Assembly (NCBI GenBank): GCA_001798135.1
Contig: MGRJ01000015.1
Span: 186,001 to 250,000 of the forward strand
DNA length: 64,000 nt
Source: Deltaproteobacteria bacterium RIFCSPHIGHO2_02_FULL_40_28
GTDB lineage: Bacteria > UBA10199 > 2-12-FULL-40-28
Direction: 5' to 3'
Both the position numbers and the translations under genes were made by a program. The notes beneath the pieces were generated by a model that worked only from the letters and a program-made list of their open reading frames with translations, was not told the origin of the DNA and searched no databases. Shown here piece after piece: positions 37 to 48,874 of the stretch (its first letter is position 1; every line of letters starts with the position of its first letter).

Positions 37-927
37 ATGACAATTCAATTTCGTTCTTTTGGTGATTTTTTAAACAAAGTTGGTTTTACGGCTACTGATT
101 ACCAAGATGGTGTAAGTTGGGCAGAGGCTAAAGCAAAGAATTCGGCTCTTTCTGAACGAGACCACGATTCTTTTATTCGTTTAGCCAACATTGCTGGAGA
201 TTCCAGTGAAGTTGATGAAGCCGATCAAAAACTTCTTTATTCAAATCCCTTGGTAGTAGCCAATCTCGTATCTGATGAATACATCACCACAGCTTTTGAA
301 AATTCTCGCTCTCTCGATATCCATTATGGTGGCCAGGAAATGAGACAAGGCCCTTACAATGAACATGTTCCACCCACTGAACACAAACGTTATATCACCT
401 ATGTCCAATTTCTTTTAGGCCATATGATGCCCGATCAGATAGTGAATCCTGATGGAGGCTATGGAAGACAAATGAGTGATTTGGTACAATGGTTTGAATC
501 TGTTCTTCCAGGTTTATCCAAACGGGATGTTGATGGAGATACCTTAAATCGTTACACCCTGCAGTCACTTGTGTTTTATGGCAACCATGCCCAAAATAAG
601 TTGGTAGAACTTGATACTCTGATTGCTCGTTTAGAAAAGAAAAGAGATTATCTTAAAGCTAATGGTAGCTTTGAATATTTTGATGAATCTTCAGAGGAAT
701 CCATTAAAGCTGAAATGGATGGGGATTCAGCCCTAGCCTATGCCCTGCAATACTTGGGGCACTTAGATGGCATGGCTTCTATTAGTTCCTATGAGAATTC
801 CTTCTTAGAACAAGGAGTGGGGGATATTATTAAAGCTAACTTTGGTGGCACAGGTGCAACCTACAATGCCGACATTTTAACCAAAGTCATTGATGAATTA
901 AAAGAGCTTCGTGAATCCCTTGCCTAA
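37..927 (+). CDS. Uncharacterised 296-residue soluble protein
   Basis: I do not recognise this protein. It has no signal peptide and no membrane segment, is acidic, and looks alpha-helical, with a short charged heptad-like stretch near residues 190-210 (LDTLIARLEKKRDYL). Several Gly-Gly and Asp-rich turns occur in the middle (around DVDGDTLNRY). The start is well supported: AAGGAG lies 6 bases before the ATG. Only 36 bases of upstream sequence are in the window, so its promoter and operon are unknown. It faces the TRAP gene dctP with an 11-base gap and no visible terminator. It could be a structural, secreted or phage-like protein, but nothing in the sequence decides this. Confidence 0.8.
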   Translation: MTIQFRSFGDFLNKVGFTATDYQDGVSWAEAKAKNSALSERDHDSFIRLANIAGDSSEVDEADQKLLYSNPLVVANLVSDEYITTAFENSRSLDIHYGGQEMRQGPYNEHVPPTEHKRYITYVQFLLGHMMPDQIVNPDGGYGRQMSDLVQWFESVLPGLSKRDVDGDTLNRYTLQSLVFYGNHAQNKLVELDTLIARLEKKRDYLKANGSFEYFDESSEESIKAEMDGDSALAYALQYLGHLDGMASISSYENSFLEQGVGDIIKANFGGTGATYNADILTKVIDELKELRESLA

Positions 928-3737: not shown

Positions 3738-5090
3738 TTATTTTACAATACGAATAAGGGTACCAAAGTACAACAAGAGGGTTAAGATATCGAGGAAAAA
3801 ATTTACTACAGGACCTGTGGCATGGGTTAGATCAATACGAATTTTACGTAAAAAATAAGGGATAAAAAAACCAGCTAATACAGAAATAAACATGGCAAAG
3901 AAAAGTGAAATCACAATAGCCAATGAAAGTTTAAAATTGTCATGAAAACGAAAAAAGGCATAAACCACAACAGTTAACGAACTAAAAAACCCGATAATAG
4001 CTGTTGAACATAATTGTCCAATCAAAATTCGAAAAACCCTTTTTGGTAAAAACAAACCTTGAGACATTTCATAAATACTGATGGTCGACATTTGTCTGGC
4101 AATTAAACCTGTAAAGCGAAGAATAATGGGAATAAAACCAGCAAAAATACCTTCTGGAGGAAGCCACTGATAAAAATCGGTAATCACCTCGCAAATAATT
4201 AAACCACCTAAAAAGATAATCATGTAAGAAGCCAGTTTTTTGCGAATACCGCGCAAACCTCCATCACCTTCTACATCACTAATGCTGGCCTGCCCCATTT
4301 TCATGGCATGCTCTTGGGCTGTTTCTTGAATCACATCAATCACGTCATCAACAGTAATTACTCCCATCAATTTGTTGTTAGTATCAACAACAGGCAAGGC
4401 CACAAAGTCATACTCACTCACGAGTCTTGCTACTTCTTGTTGCGATTCATCAACAGTTACTCTCACCACATCGTTAAACATGAGTTCTTTTAAGAGCGAA
4501 TCGTCTTTAGCTCTAAAAAGTTGTGGAAGAGAAATCACACCTTTCAAATTATTAAGCTCATCAACTACATAAATGTAATAAATAGTTTCAGCTTTATGAG
4601 CCTCCCTTAAAGTTTTAATGGCATTTTGTACTGTCATCTCTTCTGTTAATTTAAAAATTTCCGTAGACATCAAGGCCCCAGCCGTTGTTTCCTGATACTG
4701 AAGAAGGGCACTTACTTCCGAAGAATTATCTTGGGTCATTAAACTTAAAAGGGCTTGGGCATCAACATCATCCAACTCTTTAAGTAAATCAGCCCGATCA
4801 TCACTGGCCACCATTTCTAAAATTTTAGCCATCCGGGCGTAATCTTGATGATTCTTTAAGTAATTCTTTAAAAAAGATGATCCAAGCCTTGAAAATATAT
4901 CAGCTATTTTTTTGATATCATAAAGGTAACTTAAGATACAATCTTGATCTTCTGCTGGAAAAAGAGGAATAATCGAAGCAATATCAGTTGGGTGAAGTTT
5001 AGTAATTAAATTTTTAGCATTACTTGTTGCGCCCATTCTTAAAAGACGTTGAATAGTTTGAAACAAATTTTGTTGTTGATTAAGCGACAT
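3738..5090 (-). CDS. mgtE: Magnesium transporter MgtE
   Basis: Inner-membrane Mg2+ channel/transporter gated by cytosolic magnesium. The order is N-terminal helical domain (about residues 20-125, with repeated DxxDI/LL elements), two CBS domains (about 130-250, ending VVDTNNKLMGVITVDDVIDV), then a plug helix and five membrane helices from about 285 to the end. The TM part carries the MgtE hallmark region (IPIILRFTGLIARQMSTI). Length is 450 residues. The ATG at 5090 follows the pfkB stop by one base; an upstream TTG at 5111 would overlap pfkB and adds no family sequence. There is no leader that could hold an M-box riboswitch. Confidence 0.93.
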   Translation of the reverse strand: MSLNQQQNLFQTIQRLLRMGATSNAKNLITKLHPTDIASIIPLFPAEDQDCILSYLYDIKKIADIFSRLGSSFLKNYLKNHQDYARMAKILEMVASDDRADLLKELDDVDAQALLSLMTQDNSSEVSALLQYQETTAGALMSTEIFKLTEEMTVQNAIKTLREAHKAETIYYIYVVDELNNLKGVISLPQLFRAKDDSLLKELMFNDVVRVTVDESQQEVARLVSEYDFVALPVVDTNNKLMGVITVDDVIDVIQETAQEHAMKMGQASISDVEGDGGLRGIRKKLASYMIIFLGGLIICEVITDFYQWLPPEGIFAGFIPIILRFTGLIARQMSTISIYEMSQGLFLPKRVFRILIGQLCSTAIIGFFSSLTVVVYAFFRFHDNFKLSLAIVISLFFAMFISVLAGFFIPYFLRKIRIDLTHATGPVVNFFLDILTLLLYFGTLIRIVK

Positions 5091-5091
5091 A

Positions 5092-6006
5092 TTAAAAACT
5101 AATTTCGTCAAAATGACTTAAATTTTTAAAGGCAGTATAACGAGCATGAAGATCTTTTTGAGTTAAATGACGTATACGATCACAGCTAAATTTTTCTACA
5201 TTATAAGAAGCCATCACACTTCCCACAATCATCGCCTGACGAAAGGTAGAAAGACTTAAATCATTTTTCATGGCAAGATAACCAAAAAGCCCCCCTGCAA
5301 AACTATCCCCTGCCCCTGTAGGATCAAATACATCTGAAAGTGGCATCCCGGGAGCTGAAAAAATATGCCCATCATAAAAAAGCAAGGCTCCATACTCACC
5401 TTGTTTAATCACCACAATACGAGGACCTAATTGATGAATAACTTGGGCAGCTTTAACCAAGTTGGTTTTACCAGATAAAAGACGGGCTTCACCTTCATTA
5501 ATAACGATCATATCAACTAAACTTATCGTTTTTAAAAGGGACTCTCTTTTTCCTTCAATCCAAAAATTCATGGTATCACAAGCAAGAAGTTTTGGTTTTT
5601 TAACCTGTTCTATCACACTCCTTTGCAAATCAGGATCGATATTGGCTAAAAAAACAAAATCATTCTGCCCAAATTTTTGAGGAACCTTGGGTATAAAATT
5701 TTGAAAAACATTGAGTTCTGTTTTTAAAGTTTGGGCACTATTTAAATCAATGCCATAATGTCCTGTCCAACGAAAAGTTTTTCCAGGTACAGTTTCTAAT
5801 CCACTTACATCAATATCCCTGCTTTTTAAAAACTCAACATGTTCATGAGGAAAATCGGTTCCTACCACCGCCACCATTGAAACCTTGGTAAAATAAGAGG
5901 CAGATACACTAAAATGAGTAGCCGAACCTCCCAAACCATCTGTCATGCTCCCAAAGGGAGTGGTTACTGTATCAAGGGCTACCGAACCAATAACTAAAAT
6001 ACCCAT
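5092..6006 (-). CDS. PfkB-family sugar/nucleoside kinase
   Basis: ATP-dependent ribokinase-fold kinase. The N-terminal glycine motif is GLGGSATHFSVSAS (residues 24-37) and the C-terminal PfkB signature DPTGAGDSFAGG lies at 228-239, with Asp234 the expected catalytic base. Length (304) is normal. SD AAAGGA precedes the ATG. It sits 13 bases after mtnP, so the substrate may relate to methylthioadenosine salvage (a ribose, methylthioribose or adenosine-like compound), but the family is too broad to name it from sequence. The fold also covers adenosine kinase; that is an alternative. Confidence 0.85.
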   Translation of the reverse strand: MGILVIGSVALDTVTTPFGSMTDGLGGSATHFSVSASYFTKVSMVAVVGTDFPHEHVEFLKSRDIDVSGLETVPGKTFRWTGHYGIDLNSAQTLKTELNVFQNFIPKVPQKFGQNDFVFLANIDPDLQRSVIEQVKKPKLLACDTMNFWIEGKRESLLKTISLVDMIVINEGEARLLSGKTNLVKAAQVIHQLGPRIVVIKQGEYGALLFYDGHIFSAPGMPLSDVFDPTGAGDSFAGGLFGYLAMKNDLSLSTFRQAMIVGSVMASYNVEKFSCDRIRHLTQKDLHARYTAFKNLSHFDEISF

Positions 6007-6019
6007 AGTATCCTTTCGT

Positions 6020-6883
6020 TTAAATATATTTTTGTATGAGAAGAGAAAGTTTTTTCTTGGTTTTAGCGGATATCTTTTTTCGATCTGTTAAAATTGCATG
6101 AGCTAAAGCATAACGACATTTCCCTGTACAAGCAGAAATTCCCAACACTAACACCTGCTTTAAAATTTTCTGGGCCATGACAATATTATTTTTTAAAACT
6201 TCTACCACTTGATCTGCTGTAACCTCCTCATGTCCCACTCGCCAACAATCATAATCAGTAGAAAGAGCCAAAGTGGCATAACACATTTCGGCTTCCCTGG
6301 CGAGTTTAGCTTCTTGCACATTGGTCATGCCAATCACATGAGCATTCATTAATCGATACCAATGTGATTCGGCCTGAGTAGAAAATTGTGGACCTTCCAT
6401 ACACAGATAAGTCCCTTGAGGATGAATAGAAGCCCCTGCCTTATGAGAAGCTTCAATTAAAGCTAAACGAAGGCTGGGACAAGTAGGCTCAGCCAGACTC
6501 ACATGAGCCACTATTCCTTGATCAAAAAAACTAGATTCACGGGCATAGGTTCGATCGATAAATTGATCAACCACAACCATATCACCAGGTTTTATTTCTT
6601 CCTTCAAAGAACCAACAGCAGAAACAGAAATAATAGAGCTTACTCCTATCTTTTTTAAAGCCCAAATGTTGGCTCTAAAATTAATATGGGTGGGATTAAT
6701 CAGGTGTCCTGCCCCATGTCTTGGAAGAAAAGCTACCTCTTTCCCTTCTAAGGTGCCTAATAAAATAGAATCCGATGGTTTACCAAAAGGAGTTAATAAA
6801 GAAACTTTTTTCTTCAACCGAAAGTCAACCATAGAGTACAAACCGCTTCCACCAATAATTCCAATCAATTCTGTATTTTTCAT
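6020..6883 (-). CDS. mtnP: S-methyl-5'-thioadenosine phosphorylase (MTAP family)
   Basis: Splits methylthioadenosine with phosphate into adenine and methylthioribose-1-phosphate, recycling the by-product of polyamine and related synthesis. The phosphate loop GGSGLY is at residues 11-16, RHGAGH follows, and the family signature runs MTNVQEAKLAREAEMCY with TDYDCW behind it; Asp in TDYDCW points to an adenine-type purine site. It is slightly long at 287, with a Cys-containing tail (ACTGKCRYA). SD GGAGAAG precedes the ATG. First gene of a mtnP-pfkB-mgtE-recO run; a possible promoter overlaps its leader. Confidence 0.92.
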   Translation of the reverse strand: MKNTELIGIIGGSGLYSMVDFRLKKKVSLLTPFGKPSDSILLGTLEGKEVAFLPRHGAGHLINPTHINFRANIWALKKIGVSSIISVSAVGSLKEEIKPGDMVVVDQFIDRTYARESSFFDQGIVAHVSLAEPTCPSLRLALIEASHKAGASIHPQGTYLCMEGPQFSTQAESHWYRLMNAHVIGMTNVQEAKLAREAEMCYATLALSTDYDCWRVGHEEVTADQVVEVLKNNIVMAQKILKQVLVLGISACTGKCRYALAHAILTDRKKISAKTKKKLSLLIQKYI

Positions 6884-6891
6884 ATCTTCTC

Positions 6892-6919
6892 CCTATACTA
6901 AAGCCTTCTTCTATTTCAA
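6892..6919 (-). promoter_or_regulatory. Putative sigma-70 promoter of mtnP
   Basis: On the minus strand TTGAAA (6914-6919) is 16 bases from TATAGG (6892-6897). The -10 ends 8 bases before the mtnP ATG, so the mRNA leader would be only a few bases, too short to carry the SD seen there. Called by eye. Confidence 0.4.
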
Positions 6920-6933
6920 TGTTTTTTCTTAAC

Positions 6934-6962
6934 TTGCAAGACGCACTCACTCCAACTAGATT
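6934..6962 (+). promoter_or_regulatory. Putative promoter of tldD, nearly leaderless
   Basis: TTGCAA (6934-6939) and TAGATT (6957-6962) are 17 bases apart. Nine bases separate the -10 from the tldD ATG, and no SD is present in them. Transcription would start 2-3 bases before the start codon. Confidence 0.45.
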
Positions 6963-6971
6963 TCAAAAATC

Positions 6972-8357
6972 ATGAAAACAGGAGAAGCCTTTTTACTCAT
7001 TCAAAAAGCTATCCAATCTGGAGGAGAGTATGCTGATGTTTTTCTGGAATCCAAACATCAAACTCATATTGTTCTTGAAAACAAAACAATTGATCAAATT
7101 TTTTCTGGAAAAATAACTGGAGCTGCTATTCGCGTTATCTCTGAATTTAAGAATTATCTTACTATTACCCAAGATATTTCAATCCCAAATCTTTTAAAAG
7201 AAGCAAACCTCCTGGCCACATCAATTAAAAAAAACAAACGGTCCCCGAAGTCAACGACCAAAGGAAGTGCCTGTGGTACAAGTAAAATAAGTCCTCCATC
7301 CTCACAAGTGGGTTTAAAAAAAATTGTAACCCATTTAAAAAAAATTGAAAAATTGGCCTGGAAAATGTCGCCCCATAGCGTACAGGTTAAACTTTCCTAC
7401 TCCGATTCCCTACGAGCCATCGAAATGGCAACCAGTGATTTTAGCTTTTTAAAACAAAGCACTCCTCAAGCTAGTTTTTCAGTTTTAATCACTGTCTCTA
7501 AAAAAGGAAAAAATTTTACAGGCTTTCATTCATTAGGAGGGCAATTTGGATCACACTTTATCTCTCTTGATGCTTTTGAAGAATGTGCACTACTGGCCAC
7601 CCAAAGGGCTATAACAAACATGTCAGCTAAAACCATCACAGGAGGAGTGATGCCCGTTGTGATTTCTTCTTCATCAGGTGGCACTCTCATTCACGAAGCC
7701 ATTGGACATGGTTTAGAAGCTGATTTAGCCCTAGAAGGGCTTTCTGTTTATAAAAATAAACTGGGGGAAAAAGTAGCAAGTTCTAAAGTAACCATTACAG
7801 ATAACCCCACACTTCAAGGTAAACGAGGTTCTTACATGTTTGATGATGAAGGCATTCGTGCTCAAAATACAATTCTTATCGAAAAAGGAATTCTGAAAAA
7901 CTTTTTATGTGATCGACTCCACGCCCTTAAATTTGGCTTGAAATCCAATGCCCATGGACGTCGTGAAGATTTTACTGCAAAACCCATTGTACGCATGGCT
8001 AACACCATGATGCTACCTGGCCCCGATGATCCTCAAAAAATACTTAGTTCTGTAAACCATGGACTTTTTGTAACCATGATGGGTGGAGGCGAAGTTAATA
8101 CTGTGAATGGAGATTTTGTTTTTGAAGTCACCGAGGGATATTTGATTGAAAATGGAAAAAAAGGCGAACCTGTCAGAGGGGTTAGCCTTGTAGGAAATGC
8201 AGCTCATGTACTTGCCTCTATCGATCTTGTTGGTTCTGATTTTGGTTTTTCTGTTGGAACTTGTGAAAAAGATGGACAAGATGTTCCTATTACCGATGGC
8301 ATGCCAACGGTTAGGATTCCTCTTTTAACGGTTGGGGGAAGCACTTCAAACCAATAA
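6972..8357 (+). CDS. tldD: TldD-family metalloprotease
   Basis: Zinc peptidase subunit; in E. coli TldD pairs with TldE (PmbA) to trim peptides such as microcin B17 precursor and CcdA. The catalytic motif HEAIGHGLEADL is at residues 241-252 (HExxxH) and the third zinc ligand is probably the Cys in VGTCEKDG near the C terminus. Length (461) is normal. No pmbA partner is in the window. There is no SD before the ATG, matching the leaderless-type promoter. The last 47 bases overlap the convergent pgeF. Confidence 0.92.
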   Translation: MKTGEAFLLIQKAIQSGGEYADVFLESKHQTHIVLENKTIDQIFSGKITGAAIRVISEFKNYLTITQDISIPNLLKEANLLATSIKKNKRSPKSTTKGSACGTSKISPPSSQVGLKKIVTHLKKIEKLAWKMSPHSVQVKLSYSDSLRAIEMATSDFSFLKQSTPQASFSVLITVSKKGKNFTGFHSLGGQFGSHFISLDAFEECALLATQRAITNMSAKTITGGVMPVVISSSSGGTLIHEAIGHGLEADLALEGLSVYKNKLGEKVASSKVTITDNPTLQGKRGSYMFDDEGIRAQNTILIEKGILKNFLCDRLHALKFGLKSNAHGRREDFTAKPIVRMANTMMLPGPDDPQKILSSVNHGLFVTMMGGGEVNTVNGDFVFEVTEGYLIENGKKGEPVRGVSLVGNAAHVLASIDLVGSDFGFSVGTCEKDGQDVPITDGMPTVRIPLLTVGGSTSNQ

Positions 8358-13722: not shown

Positions 13723-16155
<2,433 letters not shown>

Positions 16156-16247: not shown

Positions 16248-16383
16248 AAAAGTAGGTTTTGGCCCGTTGAGAAACATTCTCCAAAATCTGCCGATAATAT
16301 CATTGTAAGCTAAAAACAATTTGCCTAGATAACAAGGGCTTTTGCCGCAATGCGGCATTTCTCTTTTTTCTTGGAATATCTCT

Positions 16384-19344
16384 ATGGCTATTAGAGTATT
16401 AACTGACACAATAGGTAACTATCCTTCTCTCTTGGATCCTACAAGGACACCGGTAGATCTTACCCTTCACACAACAATAGGTACTGATAATTTTCAAACC
16501 AAGTCTGACCTTGAAAGCAAACCCTACACGAGTATCGAAGAAAAATTAGGAGTGAGAATTCATATTGGCCAACCCATTGGTTGGTCTAGTTTTGTAGATG
16601 TTAATGGGGTCTTATCTCAAGGGAGTAAATCCATCGAAAACCAACGCGACAACACTGACATGGCAGCCTTTAATCGCTTTGGAGGGGAAATTGCTGCAGG
16701 CCAGGTTTACACTTTCATCGATGATAAAATCCGTATTGCTTTCCCCTTTGGGGCTTACGTTGAAGCAGGCTATATGACGGGTTCCATGCCGCTTGGATTA
16801 GGTGAATATGCCGGAATGGAAACTCCGCTCTATTATTCAGGAGTAGGCTTAAATCCTGGAATCGATTTGACCATCAAAAGAAAAAAAGTTGATTTTGGAT
16901 TTGGGCTTTATGCCAAGCTAGGCATTCGAGGTGTTGGATTACAAAATCAATCACCCTCTGGTATTTCAAGAGCCGTCGTTGGTCGAAGTTGGGGAGTAGG
17001 ACTTCGTTTCTCCATTAAACCCCATTTAATTCCATTCCATCCTACCGATAATACCCTCGCTAATGCTCCTACAACCCCTACCTCTGGAGGAAATTACCAA
17101 GTCATTGGTTTTGCTGGTGACGAACAATATCATCGTATTCGAATGAGTGGAATTATTCGCTCTCTCACTGTTAATACACATACTCCAGCCTTGAGAGCTC
17201 CGGGGGTTAATGGTTTTATTTCACAAGGGCATGAAACTCTTGTGAGAGAGTCTATGCCTAGTGAATACAGAAACTATGATTACTTAGGCTTGATCTCCAT
17301 GGGTGATGCCACTGACATTGCAGGAGACGAAGAATTAGATGCGTTTTTGCATACACAAAATGCACTTGTTAAAGCCGATCCTCGTCATCGTATTCTTGCT
17401 TACATCATTGGTAATCACGAAGTTTTCCATTCAGGTGTTGTCCGTTCAGGAAATAGTTATTTTGGATTGATTGGAGTCCTTCTTAATCTCCAAAGTAAAG
17501 AACGTACTTATGAAAAAGATATTCACGGCATTGAAGTAGGCGGAGTAGAAAATCGCCTCACTAAGAAAAAATTAATCGATCAAATTTATTATAATTTTTA
17601 TAATCATTCACCGCAACCTGCCTATCTTACTGGTTACAATGCAGTAAACTATCAAGTTAACAAGGGCCGTTGGGTTTCATGGAAAAATACAGATCAAGTT
17701 TATCAAGATATTTGGAAACAAGAATCTGATGGAACCTATAATGCGTTGATCAGTTATCGTGAAGGTAAAATGGTAGATAGCGTACAAGAGTTGATGTATT
17801 GCTCGGCTCTGAAAATGGATGAATTTAACACACCCAAGGGAGCAGTGCCTCTTTATTTTATCAATATCGATAGTATGGATTACATGCAGGTTACTACCAA
17901 GTTTGGAGCCGTTCAAGGAACTGTTTCACCCATTCAAATTAAAGTTATTTGGGCCTTTATGCAAGCCATGTTGAAATTAAATCCAAGAGCTAAATTTATT
18001 TTTGGTAGCCATTATCCTGTTACTTCTATCTACAATGCTTCTCTTTTAGGACCACTTTTATCTCATGAATCTGTCATTGCCTTCATGGGAGCCCATACAC
18101 ACGAAAGAGGTTTTATAAACCTCAATAGTGAGCAGTATGCTATTAAATACAACATTCATAGACGTACTCCTCTTCCTCAAATTACAGTTTCTTCCATTGC
18201 TGACAACTATGAAATGGGTTGGATGAAATTTGGTTTCGATGATCAAAATCCAGAGCGTCTTGTTTTAGAATTTAATTATAGAAACCTTGATAACTTGACT
18301 CCACCAGGACATGATCCCATAGTAGATAACGAAATTTATCAATTACATGATGATTTAACCAGCAATAGAAAGGCAAAAGAGTATCTTGATGATAAAAAAA
18401 TAGGTGCTCTTACCGACTTAGATGCTACTCTCTCCAAACAAATCAAGCTAGCTTTAGATCTTATTGCAAGACCTGGGGCAGTTCATAATTTAATAGTTAC
18501 AGAAGATACTATTCCTACCATGATTGCAGATACACAAACCTTTGTGAGATTATTTGCAAGCGTAATAAAAATGTCTTTATCGGAAAGCCCAGATCCAAGA
18601 CTTGCTAGCCAGGTTCGCCCTTTTGAAGAAGATACCCTCGATTATTTGGATATGCTCACCCAATATTATAATGCCGTTTTAAACAGAAAACGTACAGATG
18701 AAACTACTTTTATTAATACTTATCAATTAAATGAGTACGAAGAAAAATTTAACCACAGGATCCAAACTATCGCTGCCTTAATGAGAGTAAATACAGGTAT
18801 TACAGATGAACATGCAAAATGCAATGGGGGTCACAGTCATAGTCAAGTTTTGGAAACTACAAATGATCCTAATTTAAAAATGCAAGCGGCCCTTCTGCCC
18901 ATCATTACCAATTATCAACATTACATTTCTTATTACAGACATTGGCTCGAAAACTACGATGCTCTTCTTCGTGCTAATCCGGAAAGCACAAACTTAATCA
19001 ATGAAGCTAATCTTTTTAATAATAATGATTTTCATGATCTCTTGGGTCACCTCAGCGATTATCCTTATGGGACAAGGGCCCACGCTTTTATGACCCATGC
19101 TTTCCAAGCTTCTGTAGATTCTTATATGAACTACTACAAAGGAAAAGTGCCAAGTAATTTAAGGGACAGCGGTTTATTTACTAAACAGGAGGTACAAAAT
19201 ACTTTAAGAATTGAAGTAGATCTTGATTCTGGACAAATTTATCATTCACCTATTTTAGATAAAAAACCTCCTGTATTTGGAGAGGGAACAGATCCCCATT
19301 TTATATCAACAGATGCCCCTCATCATCCTCTTCATGCGGGGTAA
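16384..19344 (+). CDS. Large protein with barrel-like N terminus and metallophosphoesterase domain
   Basis: Not recognised as a whole; 986 residues. Residues about 25-215 alternate polar and hydrophobic positions with many Gly and aromatic turns (IRIAFPFGAYVEAGYMTG, VDFGFGLYAKLGIRG), like a beta-barrel, but no signal peptide is visible. A calcineurin-like phosphoesterase follows: GDATD near 307, GNHE near 343, GSHYP near 541 and GAHTHERG near 569, the usual metal-site series. The C-terminal third is helical with a His cluster (NGGHSHS) and a His-rich tail. ATG 16384 is chosen over a TTG at 16342 that lies within a hairpin. Its substrate and location are unknown. Confidence 0.72.
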   Translation: MAIRVLTDTIGNYPSLLDPTRTPVDLTLHTTIGTDNFQTKSDLESKPYTSIEEKLGVRIHIGQPIGWSSFVDVNGVLSQGSKSIENQRDNTDMAAFNRFGGEIAAGQVYTFIDDKIRIAFPFGAYVEAGYMTGSMPLGLGEYAGMETPLYYSGVGLNPGIDLTIKRKKVDFGFGLYAKLGIRGVGLQNQSPSGISRAVVGRSWGVGLRFSIKPHLIPFHPTDNTLANAPTTPTSGGNYQVIGFAGDEQYHRIRMSGIIRSLTVNTHTPALRAPGVNGFISQGHETLVRESMPSEYRNYDYLGLISMGDATDIAGDEELDAFLHTQNALVKADPRHRILAYIIGNHEVFHSGVVRSGNSYFGLIGVLLNLQSKERTYEKDIHGIEVGGVENRLTKKKLIDQIYYNFYNHSPQPAYLTGYNAVNYQVNKGRWVSWKNTDQVYQDIWKQESDGTYNALISYREGKMVDSVQELMYCSALKMDEFNTPKGAVPLYFINIDSMDYMQVTTKFGAVQGTVSPIQIKVIWAFMQAMLKLNPRAKFIFGSHYPVTSIYNASLLGPLLSHESVIAFMGAHTHERGFINLNSEQYAIKYNIHRRTPLPQITVSSIADNYEMGWMKFGFDDQNPERLVLEFNYRNLDNLTPPGHDPIVDNEIYQLHDDLTSNRKAKEYLDDKKIGALTDLDATLSKQIKLALDLIARPGAVHNLIVTEDTIPTMIADTQTFVRLFASVIKMSLSESPDPRLASQVRPFEEDTLDYLDMLTQYYNAVLNRKRTDETTFINTYQLNEYEEKFNHRIQTIAALMRVNTGITDEHAKCNGGHSHSQVLETTNDPNLKMQAALLPIITNYQHYISYYRHWLENYDALLRANPESTNLINEANLFNNNDFHDLLGHLSDYPYGTRAHAFMTHAFQASVDSYMNYYKGKVPSNLRDSGLFTKQEVQNTLRIEVDLDSGQIYHSPILDKKPPVFGEGTDPHFISTDAPHHPLHAG

Positions 19345-47633: not shown

Positions 47634-48821
47634 TTAAAAGAACAACGTTGCTTGCATCCGGAAGCGATGATCAGTTTGGTCTTGAATAAAACCACCTGTA
47701 CCACCTCTGGTGATAAAGTTTCTTGCACCGGTCGTTGTATTGTGAACCAAGGGAGAATTAATCAACATGGCATAATCAGCTTGAAGTTTGAGATCATGTC
47801 CTTTGAAATAATAGTTGAAAGAACCGCCATACTCGTAACCATTAACAACAGCTGATTGGGTAGGAACAACACCAATTCCACGGAGAGCTACTTCAAATTT
47901 TTCAGGAACAATGAAGTAACCAACTTGGCCAATAAAACCTAATACGGTTGCATCGGCATCAAGATCTCTTACGAAATGGCCTTCTCCTACAAGAGAGAAT
48001 CCACGATGTCTGTAAGCTACATCTCCAGCCATGGCCATCATATCATTTTGGCCAGCATTACTGGGTCTATTGTAGTTTCCAGCTACAGCAACTGCTAAAT
48101 GGTGATCTTCAGAATCTTTAACATCTCCTTGTTCATAGCCATGGTTACCCATGATATTATAAACAAAGCGTCCACCCATTAAGAGTTCGGAGTTAAAGTT
48201 AGTGCGGTTCACATTATTTCCTTCATTGGTTAAATAAAGAGCCCATTCTAACTTTTTATCAAATACCTTACCATGGATGGCTAAGCCTAAATCGCGACCA
48301 AGACTCACAACATCATTAAGCGTACTTCGATCAACGAAGTTAAGCTTGGTATCTGATGTTAATTCTTCTCGGTTATAATAAGGCTTAAATTGACCTGCAC
48401 GAATTTCAATTTCATCCATGAACTTGTAATTGATGTAGGCATCTAAAAGCTGATCAGCTCTTAATTCACCCTCGTTGGTTGTATTAGTACGACCACCAAT
48501 GGCTTCGTATTGAACACGGTAGGTTAAATTTTCACTAAAAGCATTTCCTGTGAAATGAATCTGACCGCGTCGAATTTGGAAAGTATGAACATCGTCCTGA
48601 CCTTCCATGACCAAGGTTTGATACTGGGGTTGTAAGTGAACATTGATTTTGAGTTTATTTTTTCCATCATCCGTCTTGATATAGACACCCTTGTCGTATC
48701 CCACGCTGACAGAGCCATCCTTATCCTTCCCGGAATCTGTTCCGTTTGCGAGTACTGCTGATGTTGTGGACAATCCCACAAACACGGCTATTCCCGCAAT
48801 TTGAAGTAGTTTTTTATTCAT
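47634..48821 (-). CDS. OprP/OprO-like phosphate-selective porin
   Basis: Outer-membrane 16-strand porin of the Porin_O_P family, letting phosphate into the periplasm. Signal peptide about residues 1-25 ([21 protein letters not shown]). Mature features: [62 protein letters not shown] (a family hallmark), and a C-terminal Phe pair (ATLFF) for Bam insertion. ATG 48821 is set by AAGGAG about 8 bases before it; a GTG at 48851 gives ten residues ahead of the signal peptide. First gene after the Pho box. Confidence 0.92.
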
Positions 48822-48874
48822 TAGGTTCTCCTTTTTAAAGTTAAATAACACGAGGGGACAATGCTAATAGGCCT

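What the first reader, a model, noticed from the sequence alone, without database searches (positions are those of the whole stretch)
16384..19344. Barrel-like domain fused to a metallophosphoesterase
A 986-residue protein appears to join a Gly/aromatic-rich strand-repeat region to a full calcineurin-type metal site and a long helical C-terminal part with His clusters. No signal peptide is visible, so a surface location is unexplained unless it is exported another way. I know no family with this order.
Basis: partly seen in the sequence, partly recalled or inferred. Interest (0 to 1): 0.55.

Follow-up and report, generated by a model that had tools for sequence, protein, structure and literature searches.

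The report
Leaderless barrel-tagged phosphoesterase
A large enzyme of an undescribed phosphate-cutting family carries a membrane-barrel-like domain but no ordinary export signal, in an uncultured bacterium that has an injection-type secretion system, so it may be a membrane-anchored enzyme exported by an unusual route.

Summary
The 986-aa ORF joins an N-terminal Gly/aromatic-rich strand domain to a calcineurin-type metallophosphoesterase (MPE) core and a helical region. No start available adds a signal peptide.

The MPE belongs to an undescribed family: 12 of 46 genomes of the phylum, none among the other genomes searched (12 of 385). Its first metal motif is DxQ in 17 of 18 members. In the ten closest relatives a different strand-rich domain sits at the C-terminus; the window protein groups with them (100/100) but has its domain at the N-terminus.

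The N-terminal domain is no phosphoesterase accessory: it recurs in four other proteins, one carrying an OmpA peptidoglycan-binding domain, all without signal peptides. Genuine BamA, porin and PstS here do have signal peptides.

The genome encodes a non-flagellar type III secretion system, which exports leaderless proteins. Best reading: a leaderless, probably T3SS-exported, barrel-anchored phosphoesterase. Family, fusion and leaderless state are well supported; membrane insertion is moderately supported; export route and substrate are inferred. Both AlphaFold attempts failed (pLDDT 40 and 31), so the barrel fold is not shown.

The parts
16384..19344 (+). 986-aa leaderless fusion protein (strand domain + DxQ metallophosphoesterase + helical region)
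16384..17013 (+). N-terminal Gly/aromatic-rich strand domain (residues 1-210), barrel-like module shared with four other leaderless proteins
   Evidence: homology; periodicity; fold not shown
17014..17094 (+). linker, residues 211-237 (Pro/Thr-rich)
   Evidence: sequence; alignment
17095..18303 (+). metallophosphoesterase core, residues 238-640 (boundaries approximate), motifs D246xQ248, GD307-308, NH344-345, H543, HxH571-573
   Evidence: PF00149 matched in 4 of 9 family members, not in this protein
18304..19188 (+). helical region, residues 641-935, conserved in the family
19189..19341 (+). C-terminal tail, residues 936-986; the relatives continue here into a different C-terminal strand domain that is absent from this protein
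14848..16143 (-). enolase, conserved neighbour of the orthologues (synteny anchor)
47634..48851 (-). Porin_O_P porin with a normal signal peptide (control)

Best explanation
The gene is this genome's version of an order-wide, undescribed family of binuclear metallophosphoesterases (first motif DxQ) with a long helical C-terminal part. In this lineage the C-terminal strand-rich domain of its relatives is absent and an unrelated N-terminal domain is present. That domain is most likely an OmpA-size (about 200-residue) outer-membrane-type beta-barrel module, reused in other leaderless proteins. With no Sec signal, the protein is most likely exported by the non-flagellar type III secretion system of the same genome. 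It then inserts its barrel into a membrane, of the cell itself or of a contacted cell, holding the enzyme there to hydrolyse a phosphodiester or diphosphate (nucleotide or lipid head group). Shown: fusion, family, metal motifs, lack of a signal peptide, domain reuse, presence of the T3SS genes. Inferred: barrel fold, export route, membrane, substrate.
For: Metal motifs: GD, NH, H and HxH in 18 of 18, DxQ in 17 of 18. PF00149 in 4 of 9 members. Window protein inside a 100/100 clade whose ten other members carry a C-terminal strand domain (eight of the ten aligned, L010 and L011 assigned by eye). N-terminal domain in four further leaderless proteins, one with OmpA PF00691 at 1.5e-25. Highest hydrophobicity in the first 45 residues: -0.67 to 1.65 in 17 leaderless proteins, 2.49 to 3.63 in five signal-peptide controls. 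Two-residue periodicity z 4.6 for the domain family. T3SS parts: SctV 793.7 bits over its cut-off 692.25; SctR over its cut-off, the ATPase over both an SctN and a FliI cut-off, SctJ at 2.9e-36 below its cut-off; two SycD/LcrH-type proteins, also below cut-off. N-terminal Ser/Thr/Pro/Asn 10.0 of 25 in 17 leaderless proteins against 5.5 in 103 control ORFs, p 2e-7 (relatives are not independent; reduced set of 9, p 9e-5).
Against: No profile library or solved structure matches the domain and neither model is usable. The periodicity test is weak: the real BamA barrel scores only z 1.3 and single C-terminal domains 1.0 and 1.5. The two sister proteins in this genome have near-ordinary N-terminal composition, 5 and 7 of 25. 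The gene is not near the T3SS genes. Only two FHIPEP copies were typed as SctV. FHIPEP occurs in 44 of 46 genomes whereas the family is in 12, so co-occurrence tells nothing about the route.
Confidence: 0.42

Rival explanations
1. A cytosolic enzyme. The strand-rich domains at either end are soluble beta domains (oligomerisation or ligand binding); there is no export and the lack of a signal peptide needs no explaining.
For: No signal peptide in any of 9 family members scored; members that end without a strand domain exist (5 of 18 with a complete end, 2 more cut by locus ends); the domain has no match to known OM barrel families and neither AlphaFold run modelled it.
Against: The same domain precedes an OmpA peptidoglycan-binding domain in L052:317-3142 (L003), which makes little sense in the cytosol; Gly/aromatic composition and two-residue periodicity resemble the window porin; an unrelated strand-rich domain sits at the other end in the relatives.
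Confidence: 0.33
2. The protein is part of a leaderless outer-membrane-protein kit: leaderless POTRA/Omp85-like proteins act as its insertase and the barrels are delivered through the T3SS into the membrane of a contacted cell (prey, host or organelle).
For: Leaderless POTRA proteins (PF07244 3.9e-5 in one of three) occur in 2 of 46 genomes, the same two that hold the N-terminal domain; one lies beside a barrel gene in G002; true BamA and a TamA-like protein in this genome have signal peptides.
Against: The POTRA query was picked because it lies beside such a gene, so the coincidence is worth only about 1 in 45. Profile comparison with BamA and the TamA-like family is not significant (probability 0.2 and 1.3%) and PF01103 does not match the leaderless copies.
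Confidence: 0.12
3. The protein is exported by Sec through an unrecognised signal, or a frameshift or assembly error hides a signal peptide.
For: One draft contig; no read data here.
Against: The open frame adds only 17 residues without a strongly hydrophobic stretch; eight homologous MPEs and four homologous strand-domain proteins from other loci also lack one; window porin, PstS, DctP and the BamA of this genome have clear ones.
Confidence: 0.06

Closest known systems
ADPRibase-Mn-like phosphohydrolases (ADP-ribose/CDP-alcohol diphosphatases)
   Same: MDP-superfamily motif order and Gln at the third place of the first motif, D[V/I]Q there (PMC4334965, PMC3407115; passages read)
   Different: Only an insignificant sequence match (2nxf, 322 aa, E 1.9); about three times longer; helical region and strand domain added
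Purple / tartrate-resistant acid phosphatases
   Same: Weak local match round GHYPV...HxH (1war, E 0.77)
   Different: Insignificant match; first motif differs (DxG there, recalled)
OmpA-type outer-membrane proteins
   Same: A paralogue of the N-terminal domain is followed by a true OmpA peptidoglycan-binding domain; size and composition fit
   Different: No signal peptide, no Pfam barrel match, MPE instead of OmpA domain
Autotransporters (type V secretion)
   Same: Passenger enzyme plus barrel idea, above all in the relatives with a C-terminal domain
   Different: No signal peptide; strand domain at the N-terminus here

Membership tests
Calcineurin-like metallophosphoesterase (MDP) superfamily | Five metal motifs DX[H/X], GDXX[D/X], GNH[D/E], [G/X]H, GHX[H/X] | tested here: met
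   signature from PMC3407115, aligned motif table; DxQ in place of DxH, AHTH in place of GHTH
Calcineurin-like metallophosphoesterase (MDP) superfamily | Profile match PF00149 | tested here: inconclusive
   not in the window protein, in 4 of 9 members, best 2.4e-5
ADPRibase-Mn-like family | D[V/I]Q first motif | tested here: not met
   Gln is present but the middle residue is Glu (DEQ)
ADPRibase-Mn-like family | Significant sequence homology to family members | tested here: not met
   2nxf E 1.9 only
OmpA-type outer-membrane barrel | Sec signal peptide | tested here: not met
OmpA-type outer-membrane barrel | Eight transmembrane strands | tested here: inconclusive
   periodicity positive, structure models failed
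OmpA-type outer-membrane barrel | Profile match to a barrel family | tested here: not met
Type III secretion substrate | Non-flagellar T3SS in the genome | tested here: met
Type III secretion substrate | No Sec signal; N-terminus rich in Ser/Thr/Pro/Asn (recalled trait) | tested here: inconclusive
   leaderless yes; composition 9 of 25 here, 5 and 7 in two sister proteins
Type III secretion substrate | Secretion through the T3SS | not testable with these tools
   needs an experiment
Autotransporter (type V) | Signal peptide and C-terminal barrel | tested here: not met

The most novel reading that the evidence does not exclude
The phosphoesterase is one cargo of a leaderless outer-membrane-protein kit: reusable barrels, found at either end of proteins, plus leaderless POTRA/Omp85-like insertases, exported by a type III secretion system so that enzymes are planted in a membrane of another cell.
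Probability: 0.12. Interest if true: 0.9.

Novelty: new variant of a known kind. Interest (0 to 1): 0.6.

Why it matters
Outer-membrane barrels are normally thought to need Sec. A family of enzymes and OmpA-like proteins with barrel-like modules but no signal peptide, in a lineage with a widespread non-flagellar T3SS, would point to another way of placing barrels in membranes and makes the question directly testable. It also adds an MPE family that the Pfam and NCBIfam searches did not name and that is present in all eight genomes of the order examined.

Tried and rejected
Homology between the N-terminal domain and the C-terminal domains of relatives: not detected (hhalign probability 1.3%). 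Search of the own genome for the C-terminal domain: empty, with no positive control in that call. Defence function: no PADLOC match for the window protein (the OmpA paralogue matches ZorB models within its OmpA-domain region). Plasmid, phage and viral-contig relatives: none (for the N-terminal domain, 101, 102). Flagellar export: rejected as main route because the sole FHIPEP of the genome scores over the SctV cut-off and under the FlhA cut-off and its single YscJ_FliF match is SctJ-like. T3SS co-occurrence as proof: rejected, the gate is nearly universal (44 of 46).

Literature: UBA10199 together with type III secretion, 0 papers; no phosphoesterase-barrel fusion among the 12 of 108 papers listed; searches listed nothing direct; one Omp85 survey was searched for signal-peptide statements without a relevant passage (PMC4104836). 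The phylum name UBA10199 is recalled, not shown by a tool; the named relatives are labelled only 'Nitrospira sp.' and 'Deltaproteobacteria bacterium'. The loose motif search at the end was superseded by the aligned table. In one search the 17 leaderless counts were typed in.

Full report
Observation. The ORF 16384-19344 (+) encodes 986 aa. The reading frame opens at most 17 residues upstream and offers a TTG at 16342; neither version has a strongly hydrophobic N-terminal stretch (best 11-residue mean 0.99 and 1.14). In the same test five signal-peptide proteins of this genome (porin, PstS, DctP, BamA, a TamA-like protein) score 2.49-3.63 and four cytosolic ones 0.74-1.26. Of 17 leaderless proteins of this study (this one, four other strand-domain proteins, three POTRA proteins, nine other MPEs), all lie between -0.67 and 1.65.

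The enzyme. Pfam and NCBIfam do not name the protein and no solved structure matches it by sequence. Family members do match Metallophos PF00149 (4 of 9 scanned, best 2.4e-5). An alignment of 18 members shows GD, NH, H and HxH in all 18 and DxQ in 17 of 18 (DxH in one). The published superfamily signature is DX[H/X]...GDXX[D/X]...GNH[D/E]...[G/X]H...GHX[H/X] (PMC3407115, passages), and ADPRibase-Mn enzymes are conserved as D[V/I]Q (PMC4334965, passages). The Gln ligand thus has a precedent, but the sequences are not demonstrably related beyond the superfamily (2nxf E 1.9). Hydrolysis of a diphosphate or phosphodiester is an inference.

Family and architecture. The family is in 12 of 46 genomes of the phylum, including all 8 of the same order, and in 12 of 385 relatives searched, all 12 in that phylum. 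A scan of named genomes found two loci, L027 and L028. In the window genome and in G002, G006 and G007 the gene lies near enolase; in L027 pyrD, an acetyltransferase and an aminotransferase gene lie alongside as in the window (L027 matches the G002 locus and L028 the G007 locus in protein sequence). A tree of 18 rows puts the window protein in a 100/100 clade with ten proteins that bear a C-terminal strand-rich domain (eight aligned; L010 and L011 assigned by eye); seven members labelled as lacking it form the other side. Two of those seven, L012 and L014, run off the ends of the loci I held, so their ends are unknown; they were left unlabelled in the count of changes. Long branches make the order inside the clade unsure. 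The window protein lacks that C-terminal domain, and no copy of it was found in the own genome (without a positive control), but it has an unrelated N-terminal domain (hhalign probability 1.3%). A strand domain at one end or the other thus seems wanted.

The N-terminal domain. It occurs three times in this genome and twice in G002, in 2 of 60 genomes searched. The partners are a 475-aa protein, a 942-aa protein with an OmpA domain at 1.5e-25 to 1.7e-25, and two G002 proteins without Pfam families above cut-off. None has a signal peptide. Averaged over five sequences it shows two-residue hydrophobic periodicity with z 4.6 against shuffles; the window porin alone scores 2.9; enolase, MutS, PheT and LigA -0.5 to -1.8; the MPE and helical parts averaged over the family -1.0 and -0.9 (the helical part of this sequence alone 2.0); the C-terminal domain family 2.3. 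The real BamA barrel scores only 1.3, so the test is insensitive. AlphaFold gave no usable model and no database matched. A barrel is the best guess, not a result.

Route. The sole FHIPEP gene of the genome is SctV by NCBIfam (793.7 bits, cut-off 692.25) and fails the FlhA cut-off (695.8 of 772.1). A gene cluster on contig C31 holds SctR (over its cut-off), SctS- and SctT-like proteins, an ATPase over both an SctN and a FliI cut-off, SctL-, SctQ- and SctD-like proteins, SctJ at 2.9e-36, and two SycD/LcrH-type proteins next to unnamed proteins without evident signal peptides. Several of these fall below curated cut-offs, some score as well or better with flagellar models, and no secretin was looked for with a profile. 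Across the phylum FHIPEP is in 44 of 46 genomes and YscJ_FliF in 40 of 46, of which 39 have a short, SctJ-sized frame (typed by frame length only). Type III systems export proteins without Sec signals (recalled). The leaderless proteins have N-termini rich in Ser/Thr/Pro/Asn, 10.0 of 25 against 5.5 in 103 control ORFs, but the two sister proteins of this genome score only 5 and 7.

A possible kit. Near one strand-domain gene in G002 lies an 821-aa leaderless protein with a POTRA match (PF07244, 3.9e-5, over its cut-off). Relatives of it occur in 2 of 46 genomes, G002 and the window's own, which has two, both leaderless. These are the two genomes with the N-terminal domain. As the query was chosen next to such a gene, the coincidence is worth about 1 in 45. 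Homology to BamA or the TamA-like family is not significant and PF01103 finds in this genome only BamA and the TamA-like protein, both with signal peptides. A bacterial barrel acting at host mitochondria has been reported for chlamydial OmpA, delivered by vesicles (PMC12890168, start of abstract in listing), so a barrel working in a foreign membrane is not absurd.

Verdict. It is a new family of a known enzyme superfamily in a new arrangement. Fusion, family and leaderless state are well supported, the barrel moderately, the T3SS route and substrate by inference.

Noticed in passing
L138, L141 (G000:C31) and L105:10195-12336 (G000:C4): Non-flagellar type III secretion genes in an uncultured lineage; FHIPEP in 44 of 46 genomes of the phylum, SctJ-sized YscJ_FliF frame in 39 of 46.
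   Followed up: partly
L068:5841-8552, L069:9106-11799 (own genome), L055:5993-8455 (G002): Leaderless POTRA-bearing, Omp85-like proteins, in 2 of 46 genomes.
   Followed up: partly
L052:317-3142 (G000:C10): OmpA-domain protein without a signal peptide, preceded by the same strand domain as the window protein.
   Followed up: partly
L054:2108-4828 and 4907-7921 (G006:C64): Two different metallophosphoesterases in tandem, both leaderless with strand-rich C-terminal ends; the first matches PF00149 at 8.6e-7.
   Followed up: no
L067:9734-13475 and L055:2199-5738: Tandem signal-peptide-bearing proteins with an AGYC motif after the leader, near the leaderless POTRA genes in both genomes.
   Followed up: no
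L052:7588-8544 and L053:6613-7860: Leaderless proteins with a shared EF-hand-like N-terminus, near the two other strand-domain genes of the own genome.
   Followed up: no
window 37-927 (+): Leaderless 296-aa protein without any Pfam family.
   Followed up: no
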